Made by a program: the position numbers and the translations under genes. Below are positions 20,437-24,761 of a DNA stretch of 64,000 nucleotides, piece by piece. Numbering within the stretch: position 1 is the stretch's first letter; every line of letters begins with the position of its first letter. Below the pieces are notes generated by a model, which did no database searches, had not been told where the DNA came from, and saw only the letters and a list, made by a program, of their open reading frames with translations. This stretch comes from Ruegeria atlantica (lineage in GTDB: Bacteria > Pseudomonadota > Alphaproteobacteria > Rhodobacterales > Rhodobacteraceae), in assembly GCF_013032455.1 (NCBI RefSeq), contig NZ_WQCF01000003.1, positions 186,001-250,000 on the forward strand, in the 5' to 3' direction.

Positions 20437-21126
20437 CTAACCGTTTGTTCCCCAACGCTGCTCAAGCGTCTCCAGAGCTGCAATCCGTTCATCTGTTTTG
20501 GGATGGCTCATCAACCAGGCTGGAACAACTCCGGCCCGCTGCTGCGTTAAATTTTCAAGCTTGTGAAACAAAGACTTCTGCGGTCCGATCCCAATTCCAG
20601 CTTTGGTCAGCAACGCGGCAGCATATTCGTCCGCCTCGTACTCGTCCCCTCGCGATAGGCGCGAAGCCAGAAGGTGCGTCAACATGTTGGCGATCCACGC
20701 CCCGATGAATGGAATGAACCGGTTCAATAGCATCATCAACGCAGCCCGCATTGCGTTTTGACCAGAAAAATCAATCATACGACGTCGTGCATGACCCAAA
20801 GCCACATGCCCCAACTCATGCGCGATTACGCTGGCCATTTCCTCGGCTGAGACCTCACCGTTTCGGAATTTTCGGTAGAACCCACGCGTAATGAATATTC
20901 GGCCATCCGGCGCAGCCAAACCGTTCACCGGATCGATTTCATAGATATACACTGGAACCCGGTCGATCTCGAGCGCGGCAGCCAGCCGGTCGGTCATCCG
21001 CTTGAGTGCAGGGTCAGCCAGTTCGGTCGATTTGGCATCCAGTTCCCGGTGTGTGCGCCAGACCGAAATCCGGTACATGACAACGGCGTATGCAATTGCC
21101 AGTAGAATGGGGGCAAGGCGTAACAT
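20437..21126 (-). CDS. M48-family membrane metalloprotease
   Basis: A 229-residue zinc protease. An N-terminal membrane helix (LAPILLAIAYAVVMYRISVW) is followed by the HExxH site HELGH (103-107) and a downstream Glu in SRGDEYEADEYA for the third ligand. This resembles HtpX/M48-type quality-control proteases acting on membrane proteins, but it is shorter than HtpX and may have only two or three helices. The substrate is unknown. It is convergent with the PIN gene and stands alone. Confidence 0.88.
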   Translation of the reverse strand: MLRLAPILLAIAYAVVMYRISVWRTHRELDAKSTELADPALKRMTDRLAAALEIDRVPVYIYEIDPVNGLAAPDGRIFITRGFYRKFRNGEVSAEEMASVIAHELGHVALGHARRRMIDFSGQNAMRAALMMLLNRFIPFIGAWIANMLTHLLASRLSRGDEYEADEYAAALLTKAGIGIGPQKSLFHKLENLTQQRAGVVPAWLMSHPKTDERIAALETLEQRWGTNG

Positions 21127-21261
21127 ACTTCAGATATGGGCAAGGAATACAGTTTAAGCAAGCTTGCAACTATGCCGACTCACCTTTTCTTTAGCGTAGG
21201 CCGCCGCTTGCCCAACTTCGTGTATTCTGGGCCGACTTGTCTGCGCGACGGCTCTATAAGC

Positions 21262-23406
21262 TCAATCGTTCGTATCCGCCTTGCGCAACTCAGAGCCCAA
21301 AACGTCAAGCTTGTTGTAAAACTCCGGATCGCTTGGATCGAGCTCGGTTATTTCACGAATTATGTCCGCACTAACGCTGCTATATTCACTACCTTTCAAG
21401 ATGCTCACTTCACGCGAAGCGACATCGGGATTCGGGCGGGGTTCATCATAGTCAACCACTGCGGTCCGATACGCTGCTATCACAGCGACCTCATCCTTGG
21501 AAAATGCGTAGCGTGGTTCCAAAGCATGCGCGGGGGGGTGATCGCGCAATTTAAAAGTTTCCTCAGTTGTTTTGGTCTCTGACGCGAGCGGAACACTGTA
21601 ATTGTTGCTCAGGGGTTCTTCGGTTCCGCCACTGGCACCATCAAAATCCAGCTGATAGTCCGTGACCTCTGTCATATAGGCGTGGGCATTGGAATAGTGG
21701 TGATAGTCCGGGTTGTACGAGATGGGCTGTGTCGTAACCTCGTCATCGTAGTGATCACCTGGCTCCGGCAAATCCAAGTTCTCGTGAAAATCAGCCAGAG
21801 CGTCTTTTGTCAGTTCTGTGTCCTTTGAAGCTTCAAAAAAGGCATGTTCCGCTTCTTTTTGGGCTACCATGGTATCAACTCGCAGCCCTTTTACGTCTGC
21901 GCGCAGATCATCGCGGGCTTCTTCATAGGCTTCCGCGTCTTGCAGTTCTTTTTCCAAATCTCTGAGATCGTCATCATAATTTGGATCACTCGGGTCAAGG
22001 TCGGCGATATCATCCGCAATTTCATCGCTGCTGCGCCCGTCATAGCTTTCGTTCAAGTCACGCAGATCGTGTCGGGCATCATACAGGTCGGATCGAAGGT
22101 CGTAATACTCATTTGCGGCAGACTGGTATGTGGCGATTTTCCCTACATTGCTGTTGGGGGCTGCGTTCCTTAGGGCTGGAGCTGCTGCATTCGACGCATT
22201 CAGGTTGCGTAACTTGTCCGAGCCGTAGGGATCAGTAATTGCCGCCACAAGTGGGTCGCCATAATAACGTTTCCCGCGGTGTTTGCCGCTATACTCGGCA
22301 TTTTCATAGCGAAGCCGATAATCGGTTTCTGTTGGCTGATACTTTCGGGCTTGTGCATCGTGATGGTAACTCGGATCGTAACCTACGGGCTGTATCGTCA
22401 CGTCGTCTTGGTAGGGGGCTTTGGGCTGCGGTAAACCTAGGTTGGAATGAAAGTCTCCAAGCGCATCGGGTGTTAAAGTCTGCCCCTTGGAGGCATCAAA
22501 GAAAGCAGATTCTGCTTGGTAAAGTGCCTCTTTGGTTTCGGACTTAATACCTGCGATATTTTCGTGCAGATTGTCTCGGGCTTCTTCATAGGCTTCTGCG
22601 TCTTGCAGTTCTTTTTCCAAATCTCTGAGATCGTCATCATAATTTGGATCACTCGGATCAAGGTCAGCGATATCATCCGCAATCTCATCGCTGCTGCGCC
22701 CGTCATAGCTTTCGTTCAACTCACGCAGATCGCGCCGGGCATCATATAGGTCGGATCGCAGGTCGTAATACTCATATGCCGCCGCTTGATATGTTGCGAT
22801 CTTCCCTACATTGCTGTTTGGGGCTGCGTTCCTGAGCGCTGGGTAGGCTGCATTCGACGCATTCAGGTTGCGCAGCTTGTCCGAGCCGTAGGGGTCAGTA
22901 ATCTTCGCCACAAGCGGGTCTCGATAGTAGTGTTTGCTGCTACGCGTAACGGGGCGAAGTGATTTTTCGAGCGGTTTGATTGAAGCTTTTTTAGTGGCCT
23001 TTTTGGGGGTTGTTACAGCGTTTCGTCTGGGCTTTGTGCTCTGTTTTATGCCGAATAGTTCTTGAACATCGCGTTTGAATTCGCGCCCAAAGTCAGACAG
23101 TGAAGTTTTCTGAAGTTTTCCGCTGCCCGTTTTTGAACTGCGCGCACCGTTGTTCTTAAGTTTAATTCTCTTTCCGTATTGAGTTTTCTGAGACTTTGGT
23201 TTGAACTGACTTGCTTCGGATGCTTTGCTGGCGTTGCTGCCACCGCCGCCTTTACCTTTGCCCTTCCCATTTCCCTTACCGTTTTCACTTTTCGCAAAGG
23301 CGGTGTCAGGTGTCAGGACAAAGGCGACAATAGCCACGGATGAACAAAAAAGTGACGCGGATGTCACGGTAGAAATAAGAAAAGTTCGTATACTAAAATT
23401 GGTCAT
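21262..23406 (-). CDS. Exported repeat protein with two 221-residue tandem units
   Basis: A 714-residue protein I do not recognise. Residues 1-38 form a signal peptide (hydrophobic core SASLFCSSVAIVAFVL, likely cleavage after AFA). A Gly/Lys linker follows (NGKGNGKGKGKGGGG), then a basic region to about 155. Two near-copies of a 221-residue unit cover about 160-380 and 381-601, each with DPYGSDKLRNLNASNAA, a helical DLRSDLYDARxDLR region and the acidic SSDEIADDIADLDPSDPNYD. The tail (about 637-712) is a diverged, shortened third copy (AYRTAVVDYD; ITELDPSDPEFYNKLD). It may be a surface or matrix protein; no enzyme motif is visible. ATG 23406 is preferred over 23439. Confidence 0.75.
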   Translation of the reverse strand: MTNFSIRTFLISTVTSASLFCSSVAIVAFVLTPDTAFAKSENGKGNGKGKGKGGGGSNASKASEASQFKPKSQKTQYGKRIKLKNNGARSSKTGSGKLQKTSLSDFGREFKRDVQELFGIKQSTKPRRNAVTTPKKATKKASIKPLEKSLRPVTRSSKHYYRDPLVAKITDPYGSDKLRNLNASNAAYPALRNAAPNSNVGKIATYQAAAYEYYDLRSDLYDARRDLRELNESYDGRSSDEIADDIADLDPSDPNYDDDLRDLEKELQDAEAYEEARDNLHENIAGIKSETKEALYQAESAFFDASKGQTLTPDALGDFHSNLGLPQPKAPYQDDVTIQPVGYDPSYHHDAQARKYQPTETDYRLRYENAEYSGKHRGKRYYGDPLVAAITDPYGSDKLRNLNASNAAAPALRNAAPNSNVGKIATYQSAANEYYDLRSDLYDARHDLRDLNESYDGRSSDEIADDIADLDPSDPNYDDDLRDLEKELQDAEAYEEARDDLRADVKGLRVDTMVAQKEAEHAFFEASKDTELTKDALADFHENLDLPEPGDHYDDEVTTQPISYNPDYHHYSNAHAYMTEVTDYQLDFDGASGGTEEPLSNNYSVPLASETKTTEETFKLRDHPPAHALEPRYAFSKDEVAVIAAYRTAVVDYDEPRPNPDVASREVSILKGSEYSSVSADIIREITELDPSDPEFYNKLDVLGSELRKADTND
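21604..22929 (-). repeat. Two tandem 663-bp repeats inside the exported repeat protein
   Basis: DNA at about 22929-22267 and 22266-21604 encodes the two units with a period of 663 bp (for example CAGGTTGCG at 22201 and 22864). The stretch for the acidic module is almost identical at the nucleotide level, silent positions included, while the flanks have diverged. This points to recent duplication or gene conversion of the core. Confidence 0.8.
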
Positions 23407-23576
23407 TTTAGCCCCCCAGCCACAACCAAGGCTAAACATATCATAAAATTCGGATCCGTAGGGGTTTTTTGGCCAATTGTTTCAGAATGGCGGATAAAGC
23501 CCTGTAGGATAGGGAAAATACGCGTTTTTGTTTCTGATTTTGACGATAATTTTGAAAACTGCCGGTCTGCTACGTT

Positions 23577-24761
23577 CTAGCGCGTCAGCTCTCGCATGCC
23601 CTGATCTAGCCCGGCCAACGTCATCGGCACCATGCGATCTTCGAAGATCTCTTGGATCATGCCGACGGATTGGGTGTATTTCCAGTATTTCTTAGGCGCC
23701 GGATTAATCCACAGGTTTGATGGCCATTGCTCGCGCGCTCGCTGCAGCCAGACCTGACCGGCTTCTTGGTTCCAATGCTCATTTGCGCCGCCAGGATAGG
23801 CTATTTCGTAGGGGCTCATTGAGGCGTCGCCGACGAAGATACATTTGTAGTCCGAGCCGTAGGTCCGCAGCACTTCATGTGTTGGGGTTTGTTGATCCCA
23901 GCGGCGGCGATTGTCGCGCCAGACACCTTCGTAGAGGCAATTGTGGAAATAGTAATATTCCAAATGCTTGAACTCGGTCCGGGCGGCCGAGAACAGCTCT
24001 TCAACTACCTTGATATGAGGGTCCATCGAGCCGCCGACATCCAGAAACAACAGCACCTTAACCGCGTTGTGACGCTCAGGCCGGGTTTTGACATCCAGAT
24101 AGCCATGCTCGGCCGTGGCGCGGATGGTACCGTCCAGATCAAGTTCCTCTGCCGCCCCCTCGCGCACCCAGCGGCGCAGGCGTTTTAGGGCGACCTTGAT
24201 ATTCCGTGTTCCTAGCTCGACTGTGTCATCCAAGTTCTTGAATTCGCGCTTATCCCAGACTTTGACTGCGCGTTGGTGGCGGCTTTCCTTCTGGCCAATG
24301 CGCACACCTTCGGGGTTGTACCCGTAGGCGCCGAACGGGGATGTCCCGGCTGTACCAATCCATTTGTTGCCACCCTGATGGCGACCTTGCTGTTCCTTCA
24401 GGCGCTCACGCAGCGTCTCCATAAGCTTGTCGAAACCGCCAAGGGCTTCAATTTCCGCCTTTTCTTCTTCGGACAGGTGCTTTTCGGCCATTTTGGCCAG
24501 CCAGTCGGCAGGGATATCAACCGCTTCCAAAACCTGATCGAAGCTGATCTGGTCCAGGCCTTCGAAACTGGCGGCAAATGCGCGGTCGAACTTGTCGATG
24601 TTGCGCTCGTCTTTCACCATCGAGACGCGGGCAAGGTAGTAGAATGCCTCGACATCATAGGTGGCCAATCCCTTTTTCATACCCTCCAGAAAAGTCAGAT
24701 ATTCGCGCAAAGATACGGGAATGCCTGCTATCCGTAGGTTTTCGAAAAAGGGTATGAACAT
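23577..24761 (-). CDS. CoxE-type von Willebrand factor A domain protein
   Basis: A 394-residue cytoplasmic protein. The N-terminal two thirds match the CoxE/DUF-type VWA family (FENLRIAGIPVSLREYLTFL; KRLRRWVREGAAEELDLDG). The VWA domain has a MIDAS-like motif DVGGSMD at 241-247 (Asp241, Gly243, Ser245; Gly replaces the usual Ser). Such proteins work with MoxR AAA+ ATPases to assemble or activate other complexes, often inserting metal. A MoxR gene lies four genes upstream on the same strand, with a 56-residue membrane peptide and a DUF2927 lipoprotein between. The client is unknown. Confidence 0.85.
   Translation of the reverse strand: MFIPFFENLRIAGIPVSLREYLTFLEGMKKGLATYDVEAFYYLARVSMVKDERNIDKFDRAFAASFEGLDQISFDQVLEAVDIPADWLAKMAEKHLSEEEKAEIEALGGFDKLMETLRERLKEQQGRHQGGNKWIGTAGTSPFGAYGYNPEGVRIGQKESRHQRAVKVWDKREFKNLDDTVELGTRNIKVALKRLRRWVREGAAEELDLDGTIRATAEHGYLDVKTRPERHNAVKVLLFLDVGGSMDPHIKVVEELFSAARTEFKHLEYYYFHNCLYEGVWRDNRRRWDQQTPTHEVLRTYGSDYKCIFVGDASMSPYEIAYPGGANEHWNQEAGQVWLQRAREQWPSNLWINPAPKKYWKYTQSVGMIQEIFEDRMVPMTLAGLDQGMRELTR

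What the first reader, a model, noticed from the sequence alone, without database searches (positions are those of the whole stretch)
21262..23439. Exported protein built of duplicated 221-residue units with a decayed third copy
After a signal peptide and a Lys/Gly linker, residues 160-380 and 381-601 are near-copies of one unit. The C-terminal 75 residues align with the same core (AYRTA/YQSAA; ITELDPSDPEFYNKLD/IADLDPSDPNYDDDLR), so they look like a diverged, shortened third copy. The DNA of the acidic core is almost identical between copies 1 and 2, including silent sites, while the outer parts differ, which suggests gene conversion or recent duplication. I recognise no known family. A basic N-terminal half joined to very acidic repeats suggests binding to a polyanion or a surface, but this is inference.
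Basis: partly seen in the sequence, partly recalled or inferred. Interest (0 to 1): 0.72.

Follow-up and report, generated by a model that had tools for sequence, protein, structure and literature searches.

The report
Exported repeat protein with self-copied core
A marine bacterium carries an exported protein made of two repeated units plus a worn third one, and the first part of the units has repeatedly been copied over from one to the other during evolution; it belongs to a protein family without a name that we could find, whose job is unknown.

Summary
The repeat is real. The gene, in a Ruegeria-like genome, encodes a 714-aa protein (start 23406, not 23439): signal peptide, basic Gly/Lys linker, two units 221 residues apart, and a diverged third copy of about 113 residues (longer than the 75 proposed). 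Ten of 54 Ruegeria genomes carry the gene at one site. In eight genomes with both units, the units' C-terminal flanks group by copy, while the cores pair by genome in four and within one three-species clade. Flank silent differences are near saturation (0.65-0.87), core ones 0.05-0.64. This shows one old duplication followed by repeated, tract-limited gene conversion; one genome shows no recent conversion. The protein is not an orphan: relatives with an LNAAHAS...PNSxVGxIAxY head region match in 37 of 54 Ruegeria, about 46 of 295 family and 20 of 385 class genomes. No Pfam or NCBIfam model reaches its cut-off for this protein. AlphaFold2 predicts a helical hairpin without a significant PDB match. 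Function (a multivalent envelope or matrix protein with a cationic anchor and acidic hairpins) is inference only.

The parts
21262..23406 (-). coding sequence, 714 aa, from the preferred start Met12 of the listed frame (the frame itself runs to an ATG at 23439)
   Evidence: the relatives' frames have the same Met after a G-rich stretch
23412..23417 (-). GGGGGG Shine-Dalgarno-like run, 5 nt before the ATG at 23406
   Evidence: direct reading
23293..23406 (-). Sec signal peptide, residues 12-49 of the 725-aa frame, likely cut after AFA
   Evidence: read from the sequence and the alignment; no signal-peptide program was run
22921..23292 (-). basic Gly/Lys-rich linker, residues 50-173; residues 50-172 have pI 10.8
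22942..22962 (-). SLRPVTR motif in the linker, shared with single-unit relatives
   Evidence: S.RP..R in 20 of 28 proteins (9 of 10 close relatives, 11 of 18 single-unit ones); 300 shuffled sets mean 0.05, maximum 1
22423..22920 (-). unit 1, 166 aa (head motif, helical hairpin, tail motif)
22258..22422 (-). linker 1, low-confidence and mostly without regular structure in the model
21760..22257 (-). unit 2, 166 aa
21604..21759 (-). linker 2, a diverged copy of linker 1
   Evidence: alignment
21265..21603 (-). third, diverged unit, about 113 aa, cut short by the stop codon
   Evidence: 39.7 bits against at most 15.8 in 10,000 shuffles; shared with R. atlantica
22598..22656 (-). 59-nt tract of unit 1 identical to unit 2, a likely recent conversion tract
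   Evidence: (0 of 10,000 permutations)
21935..21993 (-). 59-nt tract of unit 2 identical to unit 1
23577..24761 (-). upstream neighbour, VWA (CoxE-like) protein; one border of the variable site
20437..21126 (-). downstream neighbour, M48 peptidase; the other border of the variable site

Best explanation
The gene encodes an exported, non-enzymatic-looking repeat protein: a tandem form, seen in Ruegeria, of an uncurated alphaproteobacterial family (signal peptide, Gly/Asn/Lys-rich linker, LNAAHAS-type head, helical stretch, [L/V]T/S...LLG[LI] tail). One old internal duplication made two units; a third, truncated copy exists in this genome and in R. atlantica. The cores (head plus first part of the hairpin) have been made alike inside genomes by repeated intragenic gene conversion, while the second part of each unit has diverged into a unit-1 type and a unit-2 type. 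Shown by computation: duplication, third copy, conversion, relatedness to the family (head), selective constraint. Read from the sequence: export signal. Inferred: the cationic, probably disordered segment ties the protein to an anionic envelope or matrix polymer, and the acidic helical hairpins act as multivalent binding or spacer modules; conversion plus selection keeps one face alike in both units, while the divergent halves contact different partners.
For: Core silent differences between the two units within a genome are 0.05-0.51 in 7 of 8 genomes, against 0.64-0.88 for the same unit between species outside one close clade; flank silent differences within a genome are 0.65-0.87 in all 8. 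Core tree pairs units by genome for W, R. denitrificans, G033 and R. arenilitoris HKCCC1153; the flank tree separates all 8 unit-1 from all 8 unit-2 flanks (98/98). AU: unit-1 clade rejected in the core (p 4e-78), genome pairing rejected in the flank for 4 of 4 tested of 8 (p 3e-5 to 0.011). Longest identical run beats permutation at p<0.001 in 5 of 8. Same locus in 10 of 54 genomes. Core non-synonymous difference between species 0.05-0.18 outside the closest pair, so constrained. Unit model: 76 of 166 residues at pLDDT 90 or more, mostly in the hairpin. Head homology E 4e-11. Charges.
Against: R. arenilitoris HKCCD6430 shows no recent conversion (run p 0.35; core silent difference 0.64), and two others only a weak recent signal (p 0.02, 0.05). 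No experiment or annotated relative supports the function; no informative gene neighbour (the site is a gene-turnover site). Head motif modelled at low confidence (pLDDT blocks 41-63). A paper on the R. pomeroyi exoproteome (PMC2953401, seven passages seen) names two signal-peptide hypothetical proteins, described as TRAP-related and YceI-like, not as of this kind: a weak negative, because I could not tell which family member, if any, that strain has.
Confidence: 0.5

Rival explanations
1. Independent recent duplications in each species, without gene conversion: each lineage duplicated its unit anew, so cores look alike inside a genome.
For: Cores do pair by genome in four genomes.
Against: Flanks of the same units separate by copy across all 8 genomes (98/98) and genome pairing of flanks is rejected in the 4 genomes tested; the copies sit at the same locus. 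Independent duplications would not give copy-specific flanks shared between species.
Confidence: 0.03
2. Assembly artefact: short-read assemblies collapsed or smeared the repeats, giving false identity in the cores.
For: Two assemblies break inside the gene (R. arenilitoris HKCCC1153 and R. conchae), and the single hybrid unit of R. atlantica (270 contigs) could be a collapsed repeat.
Against: G033 (6 contigs) shows a strong signal in an unbroken gene (core silent difference 0.05); G001 (4) and G045 (2) carry two units too. In the window the identical tract is only 59 nt.
Confidence: 0.05
3. A periplasmic chaperone or scaffold (Skp-like or coiled-coil tether): the hairpins hold client proteins or bridge the envelope, and the basic linker is a flexible spacer.
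For: Signal peptide by reading; confident helical hairpin; one relative of 16 gives an OmpH hit at E 0.044.
Against: No significant PDB match (best Foldseek E 0.22, an IpaB coiled coil); OmpH is not among the families listed for this protein; a basic G/K-rich linker is not typical of Skp (recalled).
Confidence: 0.2
4. A secreted surface or matrix protein (adhesin-like) in which unit number and core exchange vary the surface.
For: Unit number varies: 1 (G006), hybrid 1 plus third (R. atlantica), 2 (others), 2 plus third (window); repeats with conversion are common in surface proteins (recalled).
Against: Cores are conserved at the protein level rather than diversified (non-synonymous difference 0.05-0.18 between species); no adhesin, RTX or anchor family listed.
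Confidence: 0.2
5. The third copy is a dead remnant without any role.
For: Truncated by a stop; higher non-synonymous difference (0.27 against 0.14 in the core) between the window and R. atlantica; the three frames just downstream show no clear continuation by eye.
Against: Frame kept open in both species; non-synonymous 0.27 is still below synonymous 0.42; the C-terminal LDPSDPxFYxKLDxLGSELRKA stretch is nearly unchanged.
Confidence: 0.35

Closest known systems
Uncurated exported Gly-rich family with the LNAAHAS...NA[SA]PNSxVGxIAxY head (my descriptive label; no database name found in the libraries searched)
   Same: Signal peptide by reading, Gly/Asn/Lys-rich linker, head motif, helical stretch, tail motif; the S.RP..R motif is in 11 of 18 Ruegeria single-unit relatives
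   Different: Relatives read here mostly have one unit; minimal forms in other bacterial families have a domain of about 84 aa without the long hairpin; this gene has two units plus a third
Intragenic concerted evolution of repeats in proteins (general phenomenon, recalled)
   Same: Repeats inside one gene are more alike within a genome than between species
   Different: Here no tract found runs past about codon 111 of the 166-codon unit (tract ends 71, 105, 107 and 111 in the four clearest genomes), leaving two lasting copy-specific flanks
WXG100 / ESAT-6 (Pfam PF06013, TIGR03930)
   Same: Weak sub-threshold helical similarity
   Different: Below cut-off, no Trp in the units, Sec signal peptide by reading
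RTX / type I secreted proteins of Ruegeria (PMC2953401, passages)
   Same: Exported, glycine-rich stretch
   Different: N-terminal signal peptide; no RTX nonapeptides seen by reading

Membership tests
Uncurated LNAAHAS-head exported family | head motif LNAxxAxxxAxxNA[SA]PNSxVGxIAxY | tested here: met
   hhalign of the unit alignment against minimal domains of other bacterial families: 35 columns, probability 97.2, E 4e-11, 57% identity
Uncurated LNAAHAS-head exported family | tail motif near ANK/ASKxxLTxxxLxxLHxxLxL | tested here: inconclusive
   aligned through intermediates, but hhalign covered the head only
Uncurated LNAAHAS-head exported family | signal peptide followed by Gly-rich low-complexity segment | tested here: met
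   read by eye in the alignments; no signal-peptide program was run
WXG100 / ESAT-6 | profile score above the curated cut-off | tested here: not met
   22.1 bits against 27.3; 20.9 against 44.85
WXG100 / ESAT-6 | W-x-G between two helices | tested here: not met
   no Trp in the units; the turn reads YDGRSS
CigR-like (NF040487) | profile score above cut-off | tested here: not met
   16 bits against 78, residues 34-105 only
Skp / OmpH (PF03938) | profile score or fold match | tested here: not met
   not among the 11 families listed for this protein up to E 10 (HMMER filters drop most weak hits); one relative of 16 at E 0.044; no Skp in the 50 Foldseek rows shown of 320, best E 0.22
Any curated Pfam or NCBIfam family | score above the gathering cut-off | tested here: not met
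   this protein; 8 relatives. For 16 other members cut-offs were shown only for the first; the best E-value among the rest was 1.2e-5 (TrAA12-like, matched by 5 members), so for them the test is incomplete
Polyanion-binding envelope or matrix protein | binding to LPS, DNA or acidic polysaccharide | not testable with these tools
   charge asymmetry only

The most novel reading that the evidence does not exclude
An undescribed alphaproteobacterial envelope domain, found in several bacterial families, has been duplicated inside one Ruegeria gene, and natural selection uses intragenic gene conversion to keep one half of each unit interchangeable while the other half is held as two fixed, different types: a natural two-part repeat in which a shared assembly face and two private contact faces sit on the same helix pair, building a self-associating extracellular or periplasmic polymer.
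Probability: 0.15. Interest if true: 0.6.

Novelty: new variant of a known kind. Interest (0 to 1): 0.4.

Why it matters
It gives a clean case of tract-limited conversion inside one bacterial gene that can be followed across eight genomes, and points to an exported domain in many alphaproteobacterial genomes that the two curated libraries tried do not name for this protein. Neither is a new mechanism; a named domain and one knock-out phenotype would help annotate many hypothetical proteins.

Tried and rejected
Curated families: for this protein only sub-threshold coiled-coil or low-complexity hits (phage families, best E 4e-4, SbcC-like); relatives. PDB sequence search gave one hit at E 0.27; Foldseek against PDB gave 320 matches up to E 10, none under E 0.2. 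Phage, plasmid or viral origin: no match in viral contigs with the 10-row alignment, in plasmids with three relatives' sequences (the window protein itself was not tried there) or in phages with the window protein. First genome-contig scan with the single protein found nothing; the alignment found 7 loci. Gene neighbourhood as a clue to function: rejected, because the VWA-M48 interval holds different genes in other Ruegeria. Two-unit structure model: both hairpins, linker of low confidence, pTM 0.36, so their mutual arrangement is not known. A pattern for an SLKxLF-like segment fitted 13 of 28, none of them close relatives of the window protein, so it is not used as a family link. Paper searches: none with Ruegeria, repeat protein and gene conversion together; exoproteome search, 13 of 13 listed; the string NAAHAS gave 4 papers with unrelated titles; searches (15 of 245 listed; 15 of 2,388 listed; 8 of 8) showed nothing on this family in the rows listed. 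TRF found no tandem array: the 663-nt period exceeds its 500-base limit.

Corrections made on checking: of the 57 family genomes matched, 10 do not reach across the head region of the profile, and of the 47 that do by coordinates one (G147) held no head when checked, so about 46; another checked genome, G289, one of the 10, held none either. One of the 47 (G332) was not fetched or read, nor were many others beyond the loci. In one search, 4 of 41 genus genomes stop before or inside the head. In one search, 2 of 22 lack the head.

Dropped rows: R. conchae (unit 1 only, contig end), R. atlantica (one hybrid unit) and MAG G006 (single unit) were left out of the 16-row trees and the within-genome counts, which need both units; they are in the 19-row FastTree core trees (R. 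conchae left out of the flank tree). One search used 28 of the proteins of loci L001-L031 (L009 truncated, L019 not entered, L026 frame not recovered). Of 30 M48 loci fetched (one search matched 54 genomes), 6 carry the gene, 22 show the VWA end, 2 do not; 21 of the 22 were read and the last, L122.

Full report
What is there. On the minus strand at 21262-23439 lies one open frame of 725 codons. The likely start is Met12: it follows a GGGGGG run five bases upstream, and the relatives' frames have the same Met after a G-rich stretch, so the protein is most likely 714 aa (21262-23406). By reading, residues 12-49 form a signal peptide ending in AFA. Residues 50-172 have pI 10.8, the unit cores pI about 4.1. 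Residue numbers here are those of the 725-aa frame.

The repeat. Residues 160-380 and 381-601 agree at 155 of 221 positions without gaps, 488 of 663 at DNA level. The natural units are 166 aa each, at residues 174-339 and 395-560, with linkers between. The third copy is real: a unit profile built without this protein and without R. atlantica scores the tails 39.7 and 47.2 bits, while 10,000 shuffled tails reached at most 15.8. The matched stretch is residues 630-723; the alignment to the unit start puts its beginning near residue 613, after a diverged copy of the linker, so it is about 113 aa long rather than 75. It is shared with R. atlantica.

Relatives. The nearest named relatives are Ruegeria. 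Of 101 genomes of genus and family, 37 matched the protein itself, 36 of them in the genus; 39 of 54 genus genomes matched its alignment. Genes of the close kind, at the same place between a VWA (CoxE-like) gene and an M48 peptidase gene, are in 10 of 54 genomes, the window's and nine others. In two of these the two borders lie on different contigs. In one (G045) the M48 side was placed by coordinates only, about 1.9 kb away; in the sister genome L033 a phosphate-transporter-like gene (name recalled) lies between. G006 has a one-unit gene elsewhere. R. atlantica has one unit whose C-terminal flank is copy-2-like (non-synonymous difference to window unit 2 0.14-0.15, to unit 1 0.37-0.41), joined to the N-terminal linker, as a deletion between units would give; a collapsed assembly is not excluded.

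Gene conversion. In the 8 genomes with both units, silent-site differences between the two cores (115 codons) are 0.05, 0.08, 0.22, 0.31, 0.45, 0.48, 0.51 and 0.64; between the two flanks (51 codons) they are 0.65-0.87. Same-unit cores of different species differ at 0.64-0.88, except within the clade of G001, u4-22 and G045 (0.05-0.56). In the core tree, units pair by genome for W (the window), R. denitrificans, G033 and R. arenilitoris HKCCC1153, and the three-species clade stands together but splits by unit inside; in the flank tree all unit-1 rows oppose all unit-2 rows with 98/98 support. Holding unit 1 together in the core is rejected (p-AU 4e-78); pairing by genome in the flank is rejected for W, G033, HKCCC1153 and R. 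denitrificans (p 5e-5, 0.003, 0.011, 3e-5; these four of eight were chosen after the first trees were seen). The longest identical run over variable sites beats permutation in 5 of 8 at p<0.001; u4-22 and G045 give 0.02 and 0.05, and HKCCD6430 gives 0.35, so conversion is not visible everywhere. The tracts differ: they end at codon 71 (R. denitrificans), 105 (HKCCC1153), 107 (window) and 111 (G033), and identity falls to 0.47-0.58 in codons 121-140 in all eight. The duplication is therefore old and the homogenisation repeated. In the window the clearest tract is 59 nt, 22598-22656 against 21935-21993.

Constraint. Same-unit core non-synonymous differences between species are 0.05-0.18 outside the closest pair, far below the silent ones: the protein is under purifying selection. 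For the third copy, window against R. atlantica, they are 0.27 against silent 0.42: relaxed, not clearly free.

A wider family. Relatives with the head LNAAHAS...NA[SA]PNSxVGxIAxY: 41 of 54 genus genomes match the family profile, 37 across the head; 57 of 295 family genomes match, 47 reach the head region by coordinates and one of those failed a check, so about 46; 22 of 385 class genomes match, 20 with the head (own genome counted); with the minimal-domain profile 20 of 372 class genomes and 4 of 299 phylum genomes, all four in this class. The own genome holds one further member (C31). Profile comparison of units with minimal domains from other bacterial families gives E 4e-11 over the head; the tail is joined only through intermediates. 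The motif S.RP..R in the linker occurs in 20 of 28 proteins, 300 shuffled sets at most 1. No Pfam or NCBIfam model reaches its cut-off for the window protein or 8 diverse relatives; for 16 further members the tables show E-values down to 1.2e-5 without cut-offs for all but the first. Tandem domains also occur in other bacterial families, for example two full domains in one 349-aa frame of G617.

Structure. AlphaFold2 on unit 2 with 13 units gives mean pLDDT 77.9, two long helices (37-71, 94-143) with most of the hairpin above 90, and a poor head. The two-unit model shows two hairpins and a low-confidence linker, pTM 0.36. Foldseek against PDB: best E 0.22, coiled coils. The end of the longest conversion tracts (codon about 105-111) falls inside the second long helix.

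How it probably works. Shown: repeats, conversion, constraint, head homology; the export signal is read from the sequence. Inferred: the cationic segment binds an anionic envelope or matrix polymer, the acidic hairpins are binding or spacer modules, two units give valency, and the copy-specific halves meet different partners. I give this functional reading about 0.35, the evolutionary reading about 0.95; the single confidence 0.5 is for the statement as a whole. That conversion does not pass codon 111 may reflect either loss of identity in the flank or selection against mixing; the data do not separate them.

Novelty. Repeats kept alike by conversion are a known kind of evolution (recalled). 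The family seems undescribed in the libraries searched; paper searches showed nothing on it in the rows listed, and they cover open-licence papers only. Of PMC2953401 I saw the listing and seven passages.

Noticed in passing
window 21127-23576, interval between the VWA gene (23577-24761) and the M48 gene (20437-21126): Gene-turnover site: in 22 readable intervals of other Ruegeria genomes the gap is 134-1318 bp and holds different frames (a hemolysin-III-like membrane protein, a name recalled, in 8; others look flavodoxin-like, cupin-like or LysE-like, also recalled) or none of 60 aa or more (L114).
   Followed up: partly
L033:7985-9544: A phosphate-transporter-like gene (name recalled) lies between the repeat gene and M48 in the uncultured Ruegeria 4-22.
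   Followed up: no
G617:C117:14115-14741, G693:C147:4332-4913, L136: Tandem or partial second copies of the minimal domain inside one frame in other alphaproteobacterial families, so internal duplication of this domain probably happened more than once.
   Followed up: no
L034 and L035: Two records both titled Ruegeria arenilitoris differ at 0.85-0.86 of silent sites in this gene's cores, so they are probably different species.
   Followed up: no
L009/L090 and L011/L091: Two assemblies break inside this gene; in HKCCC1153 the contigs end near the start of the unit, at the edge of a stretch of about 311 nt identical between its units.
   Followed up: partly
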